The notes beneath the pieces are model-generated. The model searched no databases and was not told the origin of the DNA. It worked only from the letters and a program-made list of their open reading frames with translations. The translations under genes were made by a program, and so were the position numbers. A stretch of DNA of 64,000 nt. It comes from Intrasporangiaceae bacterium URHB0013. GTDB lineage: Bacteria; Actinomycetota; Actinomycetes; Actinomycetales; Dermatophilaceae. The DNA lies in the NCBI GenBank assembly GCA_000620545.1, contig JIBA01000018.1, positions 1-64,000 on the forward strand. Reading direction: 5' to 3'. This document shows positions 20,657 through 25,742 of the stretch, piece by piece. How positions within the stretch are numbered: position 1 is the stretch's first letter; each line of letters opens with the position of its first letter.

Positions 20657-21273
20657 GCGGGGCGGTGGGTGCGACGGCGACGGGGCCCGGCCCGGCCCGG
20701 ACGACGACCCTCGTCACCGGCCCGGTGCGCAGCGGCAAGAGCCGTCATGCCGAGGACCTGCTCCGGGACCACGGGGACGTCCTCTACGTCGCGACCGGGA
20801 GACCGGCCGATCCGTCAGATCCCGAGTGGAGCCGACGCGTCGCGGACCACCGCGCTCAGCGGCCGGGGACGTGGCGGACCCTCGAGACGACGGACGTGGT
20901 CGGTGCCATCGACGCCGCGGCGGGTCCCCTCCTCGTCGACTGTCTCGGCACGTGGCTCACGGCGCTCGTGGACGACGTCGGCTGGGAGGACCTCGTCACT
21001 GCCGCCGCAGCGGTGCGCCGCGAGGCCGATCGACTCGTGGACGCACTCTGTGCTGCAAGGGTGCCCGTCGTCGTCGTCACGAACGAGGTCGGCTGGTCCT
21101 TGGTCGCGACGACGGCCTCTGGGCGGATGTTCCAGGACGAGCTGGGCCGGCTCAACGCGCTCGTCGCCGGCGTGGCCGCCCGGGTGCACCTCGTCGTCGC
21201 CGGACGCGTCGTGGACCTCAGCGACGCACCCGTCGTTCCCCGGGAGCCGAGGCCGAGGACGCTCGATGCGTGA
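20653..21273 (+). CDS. cobU: Adenosylcobinamide kinase/guanylyltransferase
   Basis: Bifunctional enzyme (206 aa) of nucleotide-loop assembly: it phosphorylates adenosylcobinamide and then makes GDP-cobinamide. It has the P-loop GPVRSGKSRHAE, the DCLGTWLTAL block with its Asp, and VVTNEVGWSLV plus FQDELGRLN, which are family signatures. It overlaps the S-component gene upstream and cobS downstream. With the importer it forms a salvage route for cobinamide taken up from outside. Confidence 0.93.
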   Translation: MSGAVGATATGPGPARTTTLVTGPVRSGKSRHAEDLLRDHGDVLYVATGRPADPSDPEWSRRVADHRAQRPGTWRTLETTDVVGAIDAAAGPLLVDCLGTWLTALVDDVGWEDLVTAAAAVRREADRLVDALCAARVPVVVVTNEVGWSLVATTASGRMFQDELGRLNALVAGVAARVHLVVAGRVVDLSDAPVVPREPRPRTLDA

Positions 21274-22072
21274 CGCCTGGCGGCTCGCCTTCGGCACCCT
21301 CACCGTCGTGCGCGTCCGAGCACCGGCGCACGTCGACCATGCCGTCCTGGGCCGCGCGATGCTCCTCGCCCCGGTCACGACCGCCCCGGCCGCCCTGGCC
21401 TGGGTCGCGCTGGGCATGGCGTCGACGACGGGCTGGGCACCCGCCGGCGTGAGTGCGGTGCTGGCTCTGGTCCTCGCGGCACTCCTCTCGCGCGCCCTGC
21501 ACCTCGACGGCCTCGCGGACCTCGCCGACGGGCTCACGTCCGGCTACGACCCGGCGCGGTCACTCGAGGTCATGCGGCGGGGCGACGCGGGACCGGCCGG
21601 CGCGGCGGCGATCGTCCTCGTCCTGCTGCTCGACGCTGCTTGCCTCGCAGTCCTGTTCGGGACCGCACCGGGAACGGCACTGGCCGTCGGGGCCCTCGTG
21701 GCGAGCCGGCTCGCGTGCGCTGTCTGCGCGCGGGACGGCATACCTCCCGCGCGTGGTGAGGGACTCGGTCAGGGGGTCGCCGGCAGCGTGGGCCGGGTAC
21801 ACCTGTTCGGCCTCGTCGCGGCTGTGAGCGTGCTGGCCGCGCTCGTGGTCACCGGCAGTTCGCTCGCGGCGTCGGAGCCCTCGTGGTGGGCCGCCGCCGG
21901 TGGCGTCGCGGTCGTCCTGGTCGCGGTGGCTGCGGCCGTCGTGACCCGACACCACGCGGTGCGTCGTCTCGGAGGGGTCACCGGTGACGTCATCGGCGCC
22001 GCCCTCGAGGTCGCGATGGCCGCCGGACTCGTCACGGCGACACTCGTCGCCAACGCCCTCCCCCACCCCTAA
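21266..22072 (+). CDS. cobS: Adenosylcobinamide-GDP ribazoletransferase (cobalamin synthase)
   Basis: A membrane enzyme that joins GDP-cobinamide with alpha-ribazole to give adenosylcobalamin. The diagnostic metal-site motif HLDGLADLADGL is present, as are RRGDAGPAGAAA and the C-terminal RRLGGVTGDVIGA; most of the rest is hydrophobic helices. Length is 268 aa. It is the last gene of the riboswitch operon, overlapping cobU by 8 bp. cobT, which makes alpha-ribazole phosphate, is not in the window. Confidence 0.93.
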   Translation: MRDAWRLAFGTLTVVRVRAPAHVDHAVLGRAMLLAPVTTAPAALAWVALGMASTTGWAPAGVSAVLALVLAALLSRALHLDGLADLADGLTSGYDPARSLEVMRRGDAGPAGAAAIVLVLLLDAACLAVLFGTAPGTALAVGALVASRLACAVCARDGIPPARGEGLGQGVAGSVGRVHLFGLVAAVSVLAALVVTGSSLAASEPSWWAAAGGVAVVLVAVAAAVVTRHHAVRRLGGVTGDVIGAALEVAMAAGLVTATLVANALPHP

Positions 22073-22411
22073 CCGTCGAAAGGCCAAAGTTCGCGGGCGC
22101 GCACTCGTCGAAAGGCCAAAGTTCGCGGGCGCGCACTCGTCGAGAGGCCAAGCCAGGCCACATGCTTTGGCCTCTCGACCACGTGCTAGTCGCAAACTTT
22201 GGCCTCTCGACGGTTGAGCTGGGCCGCAAAGGTTGGCCTCGACAAGGTGCTAGCCGCGAACTTTGGCCCCTCGACTGGGGGGCGAGCCGCAAACTTTGGC
22301 CTCTCGACGGTTGAGCTGGGCCGCAAAGGTTGGCCTCGACAAGGTGCTAGCCGCGAACTTTGGCCCCTCGACTGGGGGCGAGCCGCAAACTTTGGCCTCT
22401 CGACGGTTGAG
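22073..22411. repeat. Array of related direct and inverted repeats between cobS and gatD
   Basis: About eleven variants of one word (GTCGAGAGGCCAAAGTTTGCG or its complement) fill the gap between two convergent genes. The two leftmost copies point one way, a 13-bp perfect hairpin (GTCGAGAGGCCAA at 22139-22151, complement at 22167-22179) sits in the middle, and the rest point the other way. The right part is a direct repeat of about 97 bp starting at 22192, 22289 and (truncated) 22385. It could act as a bidirectional terminator. It is a non-coding mosaic, and its word recurs in the hairpin after pepA. Confidence 0.85.
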
Positions 22412-22434: not shown

Positions 22435-23220
22435 TCAGCGGCGGAGGCGGGCTGCCACGGGGGCGGGCAGGCGGCTGCGCCAGTCGGACCCGGGAGACTC
22501 GCGTCGTGACTCGGCGATGCGCTCGCGGCGGGCCCGTTCCACGAACGGCGACTCGAGCGTGGGCCACGCCTCGGACCGCTGCGTGGCACGGGCGAGCACG
22601 AGGTCGGCGAGCTCCGGGTTGAGCGCGAGCAGCGGGCCGTGCAGACGGGTGCCGAACACGGATCCGGCGAGCACGCCCTCGGACGTGTCTCCGCCGGCGT
22701 CGTCGGCGCGGTTGCCCGCACCGACCTCCAACGTGAAGAGCGCCCGGGCGCCGTCCTCGCGCACCGTGCGCAGGTCGTTCGCCTCCCAGCCGATGAGGGC
22801 GGGCAGGTCGAGCGAGGCGTCCGGCCGGGTGACGACCGTACCGGTGACCTCGGTCGCGGGGTGGGTGCTCACTGGCGCGAGCCCCAGACCTGGGTGCCGG
22901 GAACCGGAGGGGTCGACCCACGAACGAGCGACCGCGTCGAGACCGGCGTCGACCGCCAGGAGCACCGCGCCGTCGGAGACCCGCGCCGCGAGGTCGGTCG
23001 AGCGCAGGGCCTCGACCAGCGCTGCCACGCCACCACGTCCGGTGCCGCCGACGAGGTAGACGTCGGCCTCGACAAAGGAGTCGGGCCGGTCGACCGTGAC
23101 GGTCTCGACGGCAATGTCACGTGCGGCCCCACGACGCACGAGAGCGCCCGCGTTGGCCTCGTCGGCCGCAGCGACCGTGGCGAGCGGGAAGAGCGTGGCG
23201 ACGGTGAGTGCCTTGCTCAA
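22435..23220 (-). CDS. gatD: GatD-like protein lacking the amidotransferase cysteine
   Basis: Partner of MurT by position and by the C-terminal block VFGTRLHGPLLALNPELADL, which matches the His-containing segment of CobB/CobQ-type class I glutamine amidotransferases. The nucleophile loop, normally like LAVCAGYQ, reads LLAVDAGLDAVARSW. There is no cysteine anywhere in the 261 residues, so glutamine hydrolysis by the usual mechanism is impossible. The N-terminal start is weak: TTG at 23220 overlapping the murT stop (TTGA) gives the longest fit. In the family, MurT-GatD amidates D-isoglutamate of lipid II. Here the role must differ or be lost. Confidence 0.75.
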   Translation of the reverse strand: MSKALTVATLFPLATVAAADEANAGALVRRGAARDIAVETVTVDRPDSFVEADVYLVGGTGRGGVAALVEALRSTDLAARVSDGAVLLAVDAGLDAVARSWVDPSGSRHPGLGLAPVSTHPATEVTGTVVTRPDASLDLPALIGWEANDLRTVREDGARALFTLEVGAGNRADDAGGDTSEGVLAGSVFGTRLHGPLLALNPELADLVLARATQRSEAWPTLESPFVERARRERIAESRRESPGSDWRSRLPAPVAARLRR

Positions 23221-24464
23221 TGGGAGCCTCCTCGAAAGTGCTTGGAGATGCGCCGGAAGGCCGGGTAGTTGCAGGCCACGATCACCTCGCCCGGTGCATG
23301 GGTGCGGACGGCGGACTCGATGTCGGCGCCCTCGACGACCTCGACGCCGGCTGCGTCGAGGACGGCCGCGGCGTCGGCCGCGCGTCCGCCCGTGACCGCG
23401 ACCCGCCGGCCTGCGAGGCGCTGGAACGGCGCCTCCCACATCGTGGCGGTGTCCTTGGGGCCGAACGGGTCGACGGCGACGACGAGCGGACGGTCCGTCG
23501 TGACGGCGACGTCGATCGCCTCCGCCCACCCCGCGGGGTTCTTGAGCATGAGCAGCCGGGCGGCGTGGTCACCCAAGGGGTACGGCGCGTAGCGGCCGTC
23601 GACGTCGGCGACGGCGCTCACCCGCTGCGCCGCGGCTGACACGTCGACGCCGAGGGCATCCGCGGCAGCGAGCGCGAACGCACCGCCAACGGGTCCCGTC
23701 CGGCCCGGCACGGTCACCTCGATGCCCGTGCGTCGACCCTGGTGCTCGACCGCCCAGCCGTCCCCGTCGGGCACGACCTTCCAGTCCGGCTCCGGGCGCG
23801 ACCGCTGGCAGCCGGGGCAGCTCCACGAGTGGTCGGTGAAGTCCTGGACCGACCCGCACGCCGGGCAGATCAGGGCGTCGCCGCGCCAGTACAGACCGCC
23901 GCTCACACCGATCCGGCGCGGGGCGGTCTCGAAGGCCCAGCTCACGAGTGGGTCGTCCACGTTGACGATGGCGACGCAGTCGTCGGGCAGCGCGGCCGCG
24001 GTGCGGCGCCAGTGCTCCAACGTGCTCTTGAGCGACACCCCGCGGGTGTACTCGCGGGAGCTGTTGAGCACGACGACCGCCTTGGGTCGGGTGCCCCGGG
24101 CGACCGGCTCGAGGTAGACCTCGTCGACCTCGAGGGCCGCCAGCTCGGAGGTGCGGTCGGCCGACAGGGCGGTGACGATCCCATCGGTCATGTTGGCACC
24201 GGTCGTGTTGCTCACAACCGCGCCGCCCGGCGTGATCGCCGCCGCGACCAGCGCCGTCACGGTGCTCTTGCCGTTGGTGCCGGTGACGAGGACGGTGCGT
24301 CGGTCGCCGGCCACGGCCCGAAGCACCTGTGGGTCGACGCGCAGGGCCAAGCGGCCGCCGATCATCGAGCCCGAGCCCTTGCCGAGGACCTGGGAGAGTC
24401 GTCCCGCCGACCGTCCTGTGGCCAGCGCCAGCCGGGCGCGGAGCGGATCGCGTACGTCAGACAA
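23217..24464 (-). CDS. murT: MurT-like Mur-ligase-fold protein
   Basis: A 415-aa Mur-ligase homologue. It has the ATP-binding VTGTNGKSTVT (about residue 60), the Cys4 zinc ribbon ICPACGS and SCPGCQ typical of MurT, and a C-terminal DUF1727 region. Two family motifs are altered: LNLSRDQLDR reads LNSSREYTRG, and the C-terminal W-x-W-D segment reads ATMWEAPF. MurT normally amidates lipid II D-Glu using ammonia supplied by GatD; the partner next door lacks its cysteine. The TTG start at 24464 is the best in-frame choice but unusual. Confidence 0.82.
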   Translation of the reverse strand: MSDVRDPLRARLALATGRSAGRLSQVLGKGSGSMIGGRLALRVDPQVLRAVAGDRRTVLVTGTNGKSTVTALVAAAITPGGAVVSNTTGANMTDGIVTALSADRTSELAALEVDEVYLEPVARGTRPKAVVVLNSSREYTRGVSLKSTLEHWRRTAAALPDDCVAIVNVDDPLVSWAFETAPRRIGVSGGLYWRGDALICPACGSVQDFTDHSWSCPGCQRSRPEPDWKVVPDGDGWAVEHQGRRTGIEVTVPGRTGPVGGAFALAAADALGVDVSAAAQRVSAVADVDGRYAPYPLGDHAARLLMLKNPAGWAEAIDVAVTTDRPLVVAVDPFGPKDTATMWEAPFQRLAGRRVAVTGGRAADAAAVLDAAGVEVVEGADIESAVRTHAPGEVIVACNYPAFRRISKHFRGGSH

Positions 24465-24605: not shown

Positions 24606-25742
24606 GTGCGAGCCACCGATGTCGGAATCGAGATCGGGACGGGCCGCTCGGGTCCGCTGAACGCCATCACCGACGTCGAGGGCGTCCGGGTCGGCTACAG
24701 CACGATCGTCCACGGCGAGGGCGAGATGACCGTCGGGCAGGGGCCGGTGCGCACGGGTGTCACGGTCGTCCTGCCGCACGGCGGTCGCGCCTCCACCGAA
24801 CCCGTCTTCGCCGGCTACCACCGACTCAACGGGTTCGGCGAGCTCACCGGGCTCGAATGGTTGCACGAGTCCGGCATGCTCTCGAGCCCCATCGCCCTGA
24901 CGAACACCGACAGCGTCGGGGTCGTGCGCGACTCACTCATCGCCCGTGAGACCCGCGTACCGGGGCGGATGCCGATCATGCTCCCCGTCGTCGGCGAGAC
25001 GTGGGACGGCATCCTCAACGACATCAGCGGTCAGCACGTCACCCGCGAGCACGTGCACGCTGCCTTCGACGACGCGCGCAGCGGTGCCGTCGCGGAGGGC
25101 AACGTCGGCGGAGGCACGGGCACCCAGTGCTACGGCTTCAAGGGGGGGACCGGCACGGCCTCTCGCGTCGTGGACCTCGGCAACCGGCACTTCACGGTGG
25201 GTGTCCTCGTGCAGGCGAACCACGGCGACCGGAAGCACTTCGAGGTCAACGGGGTGCCGATCGGCCACGTCCTGACCAAGAAGGTCGTGCCCTTCCCTCG
25301 CATGTCGGAGATCACCCGCGTCCCGCCGCCCGGCACGGGCTCGGTGCTGGCCGTGGTCGCGACGGACGCGCCGCTGCTCCCCCACCAGCTCAACCGGCTC
25401 GCCCAGCGTGCCGGGCTGGGCATCGCGAAGTTCGGCGCGCGCGGTGACAACTACTCCGGCGACCTCATGATCGCCTTCTCGACCGCCGCGCACGGGATGC
25501 CCGACCAGGGCCCCGGCGCCCGTACCGAGATCGGGATGCAGGTCGAGATGCTTGCGCTCGAGTACTTCGACGCACTGTTCGGCGCCGTCATCGAGGCGAC
25601 CGCCGAGGCCATCCTCAACGCGATGCTCCAGGCCGAGACGATGGAGGGCCGAGACGGCCTGACGATCCATGCCCTCGACGGTGAGCGTCTTGCCAGCATC
25701 CTCGACCGCCACGGCAGGCGCCGTTTCTCCTTGCGTGAGTAG
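24606..25742 (+). CDS. P1-family aminopeptidase (DmpA type)
   Basis: A self-processing Ntn-hydrolase-like peptidase of 378 aa. The family segments are NAITDVEGVRVGYS at the N-terminus, NVGGGTGTQCYGFKGG, and the processing site GTG-SVLAVVATDAPLLP, where cleavage before the Ser would free it as the nucleophile. DmpA-type enzymes are L-aminopeptidases/D-amidases or esterases, and the exact substrate is unknown. The GTG start follows GAGGAGGAGA at good spacing. It is a single gene, divergent from murT. Confidence 0.88.
   Translation: MRATDVGIEIGTGRSGPLNAITDVEGVRVGYSTIVHGEGEMTVGQGPVRTGVTVVLPHGGRASTEPVFAGYHRLNGFGELTGLEWLHESGMLSSPIALTNTDSVGVVRDSLIARETRVPGRMPIMLPVVGETWDGILNDISGQHVTREHVHAAFDDARSGAVAEGNVGGGTGTQCYGFKGGTGTASRVVDLGNRHFTVGVLVQANHGDRKHFEVNGVPIGHVLTKKVVPFPRMSEITRVPPPGTGSVLAVVATDAPLLPHQLNRLAQRAGLGIAKFGARGDNYSGDLMIAFSTAAHGMPDQGPGARTEIGMQVEMLALEYFDALFGAVIEATAEAILNAMLQAETMEGRDGLTIHALDGERLASILDRHGRRRFSLRE

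What the first reader, a model, noticed from the sequence alone, without database searches (positions are those of the whole stretch)
22435..24464. MurT-GatD pair without the amidotransferase cysteine
GatD reads LLAVDAGLD where the nucleophile Cys is expected and has no Cys at all in 261 residues, while its His segment (TRLHGP) is kept. MurT keeps its Cys4 ribbon and P-loop but has MWEAPF where W-x-W-D is usual; that Asp may be the residue that completes the GatD active site. Both changes fit loss of glutamine-dependent amidation of lipid II with retention of the complex. A cell wall with another alpha-carboxyl substituent on D-Glu, or use of free ammonia, would explain it.
Basis: partly seen in the sequence, partly recalled or inferred. 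Interest (0 to 1): 0.72.

Follow-up and report, generated by a model that had tools for sequence, protein, structure and literature searches.

The report
Cell-wall amidase pair missing its cysteine
A pair of cell-wall genes that normally put an amide on peptidoglycan has lost its glutamine-splitting cysteine here and, independently, in other actinobacteria, including what looks like a whole family whose walls carry an amino acid at that spot, so it may be the missing enzyme that attaches that amino acid.

Summary
The main observation holds. At 22435-24464 (-) lies an overlapping murT-gatD pair. GatD has no Cys in 261 residues; the catalytic Cys column holds Asp91 (GAC). All 9 sampled genomes with this variant (Terrabacter, Humibacillus, Intrasporangium oryzae kin) show Asp, under purifying selection, and the genome has no second MurT or GatD. 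MurT did lose the adenine-pocket Asn267 (Gly) and changed its RDQxDR loop; P-loop, Mg ligands and zinc ribbon remain. Among 256 distinct pairs read, 146 keep the Cys, with His and Asp349 in all 146; 109 lack it, in three supported lineages plus a stray. The largest (98 pairs) is a family identified by proxy as Microbacteriaceae, whose B-type peptidoglycan carries an amino acid, not an amide, on the D-Glu alpha-carboxyl; 7 of 21 such loci lie beside racemase genes, against 0 of 19 Cys-bearing ones. I infer that Cys-less MurT-GatD ligate an amino acid to D-Glu. Nothing is biochemically shown, and a named I. calvum strain, of a species with alpha-glycine, has no MurT. Rivals: free-ammonia amidation, or a non-catalytic complex.

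The parts
22435..23220 (-). gatD* : Cys-less GatD homologue, 261 aa, TTG start overlapping the murT* stop
   Evidence: GATase_3 PF07685 40 bits; S. aureus GatD 5n9m E 7.8e-16
22948..22950 (-). Asp91 codon (GAC) in the place of the catalytic Cys (S. aureus C94)
22639..22641 (-). His194 codon, the kept catalytic His (S. aureus H189), in TRLHGP
23217..24464 (-). murT* : Mur-ligase family, 415 aa, TTG start
   Evidence: Mur_ligase_M 27 bits and MurT_C 25.2 bits; S. pneumoniae MurT 6fqb E 2.9e-27
24264..24269 (-). P-loop Lys66-Ser67 (S. aureus K59/T60), kept
24129..24131 (-). Glu112 (S. aureus E108, Mg ligand), kept
24042..24059 (-). altered active-site loop SREYTR (canonical RDQxDR, one residue shorter)
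23808..23867 (-). Cys4 zinc ribbon (Cys200, 203, 216, 219), kept
23685..23687 (-). Gly260 in place of the conserved adenine-pocket Asn (S. aureus N267)
23451..23453 (-). Asp338, the kept triad Asp (S. aureus MurT D349); coordinates computed from the start at 24464
23433..23435 (-). Glu344 in the WxWD motif, in place of S. aureus MurT Asp355
24606..25742 (+). divergent neighbour: peptidase family S58 (DmpA-like), beside murT* in 7 of 8 named loci with the variant
   Evidence: PF03576 369 bits
25906..27045 (-). gcvT, flanking anchor gene of the island
20669..22072 (+). ORF with the CobS domain (residues 207-454), other flanking anchor

Best explanation
MurT*-GatD* is a diverged MurT-GatD complex that can no longer split glutamine. 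SHOWN by sequence: loss of the GatD Cys and Gln98 and of MurT Asn267; retention of the phosphate, Mg and acceptor residues, of His and Asp349, of the zinc ribbon and of the gene overlap; purifying selection; repeated Cys loss in other lineages. INFERRED: MurT* still activates the alpha-carboxyl of D-Glu of the lipid-linked precursor with a nucleotide triphosphate, and an amine other than glutamine-derived ammonia attacks it, most likely an amino acid; glycine is the documented alpha-substituent in Intrasporangium calvum. GatD* stays as structural partner, its old glutamine pocket perhaps reused (invariant Arg62, Asp91, Asp95, Arg192, His194) to hold the amine donor. The same reading applied to the Microbacteriaceae-like family makes the Cys-less pair the ligase that puts the first bridge residue on D-Glu in B-type peptidoglycan.
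For: Asp91 in 9 of 9 genomes with the variant; named loci are 59-89% (GatD*) and 65-94% (MurT*) identical to the window. dN/dS of the printed pairs within Terrabacter/Humibacillus: 0.064-0.193 (murT*), 0.139-0.366 (gatD*). Of 256 distinct pairs, 146 Cys-bearing ones have His189, Gln98 and MurT Asp349 and Asp355 in 146 of 146 and Asn267 in 145; 109 Cys-less ones lost Asn267 in 101 and Asp355 in 62, yet keep P-loop Lys, Ser/Thr, Glu, Asp, Arg304 and Asn322 together in 101 (145 of 146 in Cys-bearing ones) and Asp349 in 107. Cys status needs 4 changes on an 82-row MurT tree. 98 of the 109 belong to family f19, Microbacteriaceae-like by Dps (27 of 386 order genomes hit, all 27 in f19); that family has B-type peptidoglycan (PMC10978784 passage), for which a Gly-D-Glu peptide is called characteristic (PMC4156110 passage). 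Four f19 genomes hold a Cys-bearing and a Cys-less pair. Racemase genes lie beside 7 of 21 Cys-less and 0 of 19 Cys-bearing loci (Fisher p 0.009, kinship not corrected). I. calvum type strain has Gly on the D-Glu alpha-carboxyl (PMC3035309 passage).
Against: No biochemistry, and I found no peptidoglycan data for a strain with the window variant. I. calvum PheN6, T. tumescens JCM 1365 and T. aerolatus have no MurT in the whole-genome search, so alpha-Gly in this clade does not need this pair, or those strains use another enzyme. In the window clade His and MurT Asp349 are intact and only nucleophile and Gln pocket are gone, which an ammonia-using enzyme would show as well. I. oryzae, the deepest member, has Ala at the P-loop Ser/Thr and Asp at the KNP Lys; T60A kills the S. 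aureus enzyme. Asn267 to Gly may weaken ATP binding. In lineage f7 the Mg-site Asp is Arg in 2 of 2, so Cys loss there goes with a changed ligase core. f19 is identified by one proxy protein that hit only 3 of its genera. 14 of 21 Cys-less loci show no racemase within about 7 kb. The window clade and f19 lost the Cys independently, so one function need not be that of the other.
Confidence: 0.43

Rival explanations
1. Free-ammonia amidation: MurT* still amidates D-Glu but takes NH3 from the cytoplasm, GatD* being a structural activator. Carbamoyl phosphate synthetase I is a precedent (recalled).
For: S. aureus MurT with GatD C94G keeps ammonia-dependent amidation at pH 8.5, and GatD must be present (PMC3266927 passage, PMC6085368 passage). 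Ligase core, His and Asp349 kept in the window.
Against: Does not explain the loss of Asn267 and the loop change in MurT*. In the Microbacteriaceae-like family the alpha-carboxyl of D-Glu carries the bridge residue, so amidation there is not expected (and general knowledge). Free ammonia is scarce at neutral pH (general knowledge).
Confidence: 0.22
2. Non-catalytic complex: both subunits lost their chemistry and were kept as a binding or regulatory module, for example a lipid II sensor.
For: Glutaminase dead; Asn267 to Gly; I. oryzae P-loop Ser/Thr to Ala and KNP Lys to Asp; f7 Mg-site Asp to Arg. Pair dispensable: absent in T. tumescens, T. aerolatus and others. Purifying selection fits a binding role too.
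Against: P-loop Lys and Ser, Mg-ligand Glu/Asp, acceptor Asn, Arg304 and KNP are kept in all 8 distinct window-clade pairs other than I. oryzae. In f19 the core is kept in 93 of 98 Cys-less pairs although the Cys and His places vary widely.
Confidence: 0.2
3. Decaying relic of a MurT-GatD pair on the way to loss.
For: Patchy presence: 6 of 9 sampled genomes of the window's genus, one of the three without it being 74% complete.
Against: dN/dS below 1 for both genes, no stops inside MurT* in any of the 9 genomes, invariant AVDAGLDA and TRLHGP motifs.
Confidence: 0.05
4. The pair acts on a substrate outside peptidoglycan, for example a gamma- or beta-linked peptide or storage compound, with the adjacent S58 peptidase as the opposing hydrolase.
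For: S58-family gene divergent to murT* in 7 of 8 named loci and absent together with it at this locus in T. tumescens and T. aerolatus. The Mur-domain family also includes cyanophycin synthetase and CapB (PMC11915815 passage).
Against: I. oryzae has murT*-gatD* without the peptidase in the stretch held. On the tree the nearest rows are MurT-GatD pairs with Cys and His.
Confidence: 0.1

Closest known systems
MurT-GatD, lipid II isoglutaminyl synthase (S. aureus 6gs2/6h5e, S. pneumoniae 6fqb)
   Same: Two-gene operon, Mur-ligase middle and MurT_C domains, zinc ribbon, P-loop, triad His and MurT Asp349, class I GATase-like partner with the HGP motif
   Different: No catalytic Cys, Gln98 to Asp, Asn267 to Gly, Asp355 to Glu, loop RDQxDR changed; NCBIfam scores 91.9 and 34.5 bits against cut-offs of 800 and 400
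Cys-less MurT-GatD of the Microbacteriaceae-like family f19 (found here)
   Same: Cys lost, Asn267 lost in 92 of 98, loop changed, Gln98 changed in 67 of 98, ligase core kept in 93 of 98
   Different: Separate origin on the MurT tree; Cys replaced by Gly/Ala/Ser/Thr/Asn/His instead of Asp; His lost in 37 of 98; other neighbourhood (sigma-factor-like ORF read by eye, in part racemases)
MurT-like ligases without GatD of pseudomurein archaea (PMC11915815, passages)
   Same: MurT homologues without a working glutaminase partner
   Different: Those genomes lack GatD; here GatD* is kept
Ammonia-dependent amidotransferases with a lost Cys, e.g. carbamoyl phosphate synthetase I (recalled)
   Same: Class I GATase domain without its nucleophile
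   Different: Different ligase; Cys to Ser there (recalled)

Membership tests
MurT-GatD lipid II isoglutaminyl synthase (glutamine-hydrolysing) | Mur ligase middle domain plus MurT_C domain | tested here: met
   PF08245 27 bits (cut-off 24), PF08353 25.2 bits (cut-off 25)
MurT-GatD lipid II isoglutaminyl synthase (glutamine-hydrolysing) | Catalytic Cys of GatD | tested here: not met
   Asp91; 0 Cys in 261 aa
MurT-GatD lipid II isoglutaminyl synthase (glutamine-hydrolysing) | Catalytic His of GatD in HGP | tested here: met
   His194
MurT-GatD lipid II isoglutaminyl synthase (glutamine-hydrolysing) | MurT Asp349 (third triad residue by the S. aureus structure paper) | tested here: met
   Asp338
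MurT-GatD lipid II isoglutaminyl synthase (glutamine-hydrolysing) | ATP site: P-loop Lys/Thr, Mg-binding Glu | tested here: met
   Lys66, Ser67, Glu112; Ala in I. oryzae at the Thr place
MurT-GatD lipid II isoglutaminyl synthase (glutamine-hydrolysing) | Adenine-pocket Asn267 | tested here: not met
   Gly260; Asn in 145 of 146 Cys-bearing pairs
MurT-GatD lipid II isoglutaminyl synthase (glutamine-hydrolysing) | Conserved MurT Asp355 and GatD Gln98 | tested here: not met
   Glu344 and Asp95; Asp and Gln in 146 of 146 Cys-bearing pairs
MurT-GatD lipid II isoglutaminyl synthase (glutamine-hydrolysing) | NCBIfam equivalog cut-offs NF045635 / NF045636 | tested here: not met
   91.9 of 800 and 34.5 of 400 bits
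MurT-GatD lipid II isoglutaminyl synthase (glutamine-hydrolysing) | Glutamine- and ATP-dependent amidation of lipid II | not testable with these tools
   needs an assay
Amino-acid ligase on the D-Glu alpha-carboxyl (proposed) | ATP-dependent transfer of Gly or another amino acid to the precursor | not testable with these tools
   needs an assay
Amino-acid ligase on the D-Glu alpha-carboxyl (proposed) | Presence in organisms with alpha-substituted D-Glu | tested here: inconclusive
   Fits f19 (Microbacteriaceae by proxy); I. calvum, a species with alpha-Gly, has no MurT in strain PheN6; peptidoglycan of strains with the window variant not found

The most novel reading that the evidence does not exclude
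Cys-less MurT-GatD complexes are a second functional class of MurT enzymes: amino-acid ligases that place glycine or a bridge amino acid on the alpha-carboxyl of D-Glu. They would be the unknown first step of B-type cross-bridges in Microbacteriaceae and of alpha-glycyl peptidoglycans elsewhere, having arisen more than once by loss of the glutaminase.
Probability: 0.4. Interest if true: 0.88.

Novelty: new variant of a known kind. Interest (0 to 1): 0.73.

Why it matters
Which enzyme attaches the amino acid to the D-Glu alpha-carboxyl in B-type and alpha-glycyl peptidoglycans is, to my knowledge, an open question. My searches for MurT with Microbacterium and for group B peptidoglycan ligases listed no paper on it by title or abstract (15 of 19 and 2 of 2 listed). 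A repeatedly evolved, family-wide Cys-less MurT-GatD gives a two-gene candidate that can be deleted and assayed. It also warns that 'MurT-GatD present' cannot be read as 'D-Glu amidated'.

Tried and rejected
Assembly error or pseudogene: rejected (9 of 9 genomes, low dN/dS). Second intact pair: not found. 'The window variant is the alpha-Gly ligase of all Intrasporangiaceae': rejected in that strict form, since I. calvum PheN6, T. tumescens and T. aerolatus have no MurT. An unnamed 4.0-Mb single-contig genome, G015, has 85% DNA identity to the PheN6 gcvT and no match; I could not show that it is the I. calvum type strain. AlphaFold model of GatD* from 9 sequences: mean pLDDT 35.9, of no use, so no fold search was run. 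Naming f19 by contigs against PLSDB: one hit what look like ribosomal RNA operons, best Arthrobacter/Pseudarthrobacter at 89-90%, the other gave nothing useful. First Dps paralogue tried was of the other class. Searches and papers looked into for Terrabacter wall chemistry gave no alpha-carboxyl data for Terrabacter.

A slip of mine, mended: the column printed as 'D349' is S. aureus D355. Recounting the printed chain and one search gave the true D349 column, which is Asp in 9 of 9 window-clade, 96 of 98 f19, 2 of 2 f7 and 146 of 146 Cys-bearing pairs. N264 is also not conserved among Cys-bearing pairs (75 Asn of 146), so its change is not counted. For this I lowered the best explanation from a drafted 0.45 to 0.43, raised the ammonia rival from 0.20 to 0.22 and lowered interest from 0.74 to 0.73.

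Dropped rows and limits: of 298 loci with MurT, 6 had no GatD in reach, leaving 292 loci and 256 distinct pairs; 1 has a gap at the Cys column and counts as neither. The f19 loci are not a random sample: 11 (0 Cys-bearing), the 30 best-scoring (22 Cys-bearing) and 80 that I chose from its lower-scoring matches (0 Cys-bearing, 79 Cys-less, 1 without GatD). The 82-row tree used every third f19 Cys-less locus (33 of 98), every second f19 Cys-bearing one (11 of 22), 6 window-clade loci, 2 of f7 and 30 hand-picked others, by the quick method. dN/dS (NG86): 15 of 36 pairs printed for murT*, gatD* and gcvT, 12 of 28 for the S58 gene. Whole-genome MurT search: 50 of the 80 named loci.
Full report
What is there. 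On the minus strand at 24464-22435 lie two overlapping genes: murT* (415 aa, TTG start) and gatD* (261 aa, TTG start overlapping the murT* stop). Pfam and PDB searches place them as MurT (Mur_ligase_M, MurT_C; S. pneumoniae 6fqb E 2.9e-27) and GatD (GATase_3; S. aureus 5n9m E 7.8e-16). They fall far below the NCBIfam equivalog cut-offs (91.9 of 800 and 34.5 of 400 bits).

The residues. Printed alignments to the S. aureus chains put Asp91 (GAC, 22948-22950) at GatD C94 and Asp95 at Q98; His194 is at H189. In MurT*, N267 is Gly260, the loop RDQxDR is SREYTR, and the Asp of the WxWD motif is Glu344. Counting along the printed S. aureus chain, K59, T60, E108 and N267 fall where the paper says, and that WxWD Asp is D355; the triad residue D349 lies six residues before it and is kept as Asp338. 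Lys66/Ser67 of the P-loop, Glu112, the acceptor-site Asn91, Arg291, KNP and four zinc-ribbon Cys remain. By published mutagenesis (passages only), C94G or C94S, D349N, T60A, E108A and N267Y each abolish S. aureus activity, and S. pneumoniae needs K59, N85 and D112/E113. Ammonia-dependent amidation survives C94G.

Not an error. The genome shows one MurT and one GatD. In the 149 sampled genomes of the family, 89 have a PF08353 match and 9 have the variant at 65-100% identity. One, G130, counts in both, its match being the variant itself, so 88 have the canonical type, 9 the variant and 52 neither in these two searches. The variant sits in 6 of 9 sampled genomes of the window's genus, 2 of a second genus and 1 of a third. 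All 9 GatD have Asp. dN/dS (NG86) of the printed pairs within Terrabacter/Humibacillus is 0.064-0.193 for murT*, 0.139-0.366 for gatD*, 0.016-0.126 for the S58 gene and 0.069-0.197 for gcvT; with I. oryzae it is 0.34-0.41 for murT*, 0.46-0.55 for gatD* and 0.18-0.20 for gcvT. So the pair evolves faster than its neighbour at that depth, though still below 1. AVDAGLDA and TRLHGP are invariant in the 9-row GatD* alignment, whose least similar row is 59% identical to the window.

Named relatives. A genome scan with the neighbouring GcvT returned 80 named loci. The variant lies beside gcvT in 8 of the 80: Terracoccus sp. 273MFTsu3.1, Terrabacter sp. Ter38, Root181, Root85 and MAHUQ-38, two Humibacillus xanthopallidus strains and Intrasporangium oryzae. 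A divergent S58 peptidase gene accompanies it in 7 of the 8. In T. tumescens the printed ORF map shows gcvT followed directly by the cobS-like gene, and neither T. tumescens nor T. aerolatus has a match to any of the three island genes at the locus. A whole-genome search of 50 of the 80 named genomes found no MurT in 16: T. aerolatus, T. tumescens, I. calvum PheN6, Humibacillus sp. DSM 29435 and a Humibacillus MAG, a Micrococcales MAG, a Lapillicoccus MAG, Phycicoccus elongatus, two Knoellia, Janibacter sp. HTCC2649, Ornithinimicrobium murale, Leekyejoonella antrihumi and three Nocardioides. Of the 34 with a match, 8 are the variant, one (G525) is fragmentary and one (G530) weak and partial.

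Not alone. Surveys of family, order, class and chosen genomes plus 80 fetched f19 stretches gave 298 loci with MurT, 292 with GatD and 256 distinct pairs. Cys-bearing: 146 (124 outside f19, 22 in f19), all 146 with His189, Gln98, Asp349 and Asp355, 145 with Asn267. Cys-less: 109, made up of 9 of the window clade (Asp), 2 of an unnamed lineage f7 (Arg, with His to Gln) and 98 of family f19 (Gly 64, Ala 20, Ser 7, Thr 3, Asn 2, His 2). One pair has a gap. In the Cys-less pairs Asn267 is lost in 101 of 109 and Asp355 in 62 of 109; Asp349 is kept in 107; His is kept in 9 of 9 of the window clade and 61 of 98 of f19; P-loop Lys and Ser/Thr, Glu, Asp, Arg304 and Asn322 are kept together in 101 (window clade 8 of 9, f19 93 of 98, f7 0 of 2) against 145 of 146 Cys-bearing ones. 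So in the window clade and f19 the glutaminase goes while most of the ligase core stays; in f7 the core changed too. The f19 sample was chosen by me and leans to divergent loci. On an 82-row MurT tree (quick method) the Cys status needs 4 changes: the window clade (support 100), beside Cys-bearing f16 sequences (support 93), f7 (100), f19 as one group of 32 (100), and one stray long branch, L385, whose place is unsure.

Who is f19. The Dps of M. arborescens (PDB 2yjj; organism of 2yjk from PMC4571993 passage) finds 27 of 386 order genomes at E<=1e-35, all 27 in f19 but in only 3 of its genera, at 55-74% identity. f19 spans 85 sampled genera and, among the listed ones, 0.7-4.6 Mb. I take it as Microbacteriaceae; this is an inference. 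That family has B-type peptidoglycan (PMC10978784 passage), and the Gly-D-Glu peptide is called characteristic of B-type walls in the Rhodoluna description (PMC4156110 passage). In such walls the alpha-carboxyl of D-Glu carries the bridge (general knowledge, Schleifer and Kandler, not read), so a MurT match kept in 162 of 199 f19 genomes, Cys-less in all the lower-scoring loci with GatD that I read, is unlikely to amidate it. Four f19 genomes have both kinds (G965, G977, G1031, G1068) and two have two Cys-less pairs (G1029, G1064).

Neighbourhood test. Among 40 loci fetched with about 7 kb flanks (one cut short), alanine-racemase-like genes lie next to 7 of 21 Cys-less and 0 of 19 Cys-bearing pairs (Fisher p 0.009; 0 of 12 Cys-bearing within f19, p 0.03; kinship not corrected). 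Pfam confirms racemase domains in the 7 ORFs that I sent, from 4 of the 7 loci. B-type bridges often contain D-diamino acids (general knowledge), so the neighbour fits, but 14 of 21 loci show none.

Reading. Best supported: a MurT-GatD that cannot use glutamine and probably ligates an amino acid to D-Glu. For f19 the case is fair; for the window clade it is weaker, because I. calvum, whose type strain has glycine on the D-Glu alpha-carboxyl (PMC3035309 passage), has no MurT in the named strain tested, because I. oryzae lost the P-loop Ser/Thr, and because the rest of the triad is intact. Ammonia use and a non-catalytic complex are live rivals. Nothing here is shown biochemically.

Literature. 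Ten full-text searches. No title or abstract start listed by them reports a Cys-less GatD or links MurT to B-type or alpha-glycyl peptidoglycan; several lists were cut. Papers were read as passages only.

Noticed in passing
L387, L389, L392, L398, L399, L401, L402 (f19 genomes): Two adjacent alanine-racemase-like ORFs beside the Cys-less pair. In 7 of 7 one has Arg or Ser at the place of the PLP Lys (xxLRxDAYGHG-like) but keeps VSYG, and the other keeps the Lys but has no VSYG: complementary losses that suggest an obligate heterodimeric racemase. Pfam run for 4 of the loci. The roles of the two motifs are recalled.
   Followed up: partly
named genomes G515, G516, G520-G522, G524, G526, G531, G542, G543, G545, G546, G551, G557, G559, G560: 16 of 50 named actinobacterial genomes have no MurT, against the statement that murTgatD is universally present in Actinobacteria (PMC6085368 passage). 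Some are incomplete MAGs.
   Followed up: partly
L088/L246 (G451) and L239 (G443), unnamed lineage f7: Separate GatD with Cys to Arg and His to Gln in both genomes; MurT with EHxDR loop and Arg at the Mg-site Asp, adenine Asn kept.
   Followed up: partly
window 22074-22411: Cluster of repeats (AACTTTGGCCTCTCGAC-like, 8 copies with up to 2 mismatches, 0 expected; a 97-nt tandem pair) between the convergent ends of the cobS-like gene and gatD*. The exact motif was in 4 of 427 loci, all copies of this place in this genome.
   Followed up: no
window 24606-25742: S58 (DmpA-family) peptidase gene, the most strongly conserved of the three island genes (dN/dS 0.016-0.126), absent together with murT*-gatD* at this locus in T. 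tumescens and T. aerolatus.
   Followed up: partly
G520 (I. calvum PheN6): No MurT found although the species' type strain is reported to carry glycine on the D-Glu alpha-carboxyl; if PheN6 has it too, another enzyme must add it.
   Followed up: no
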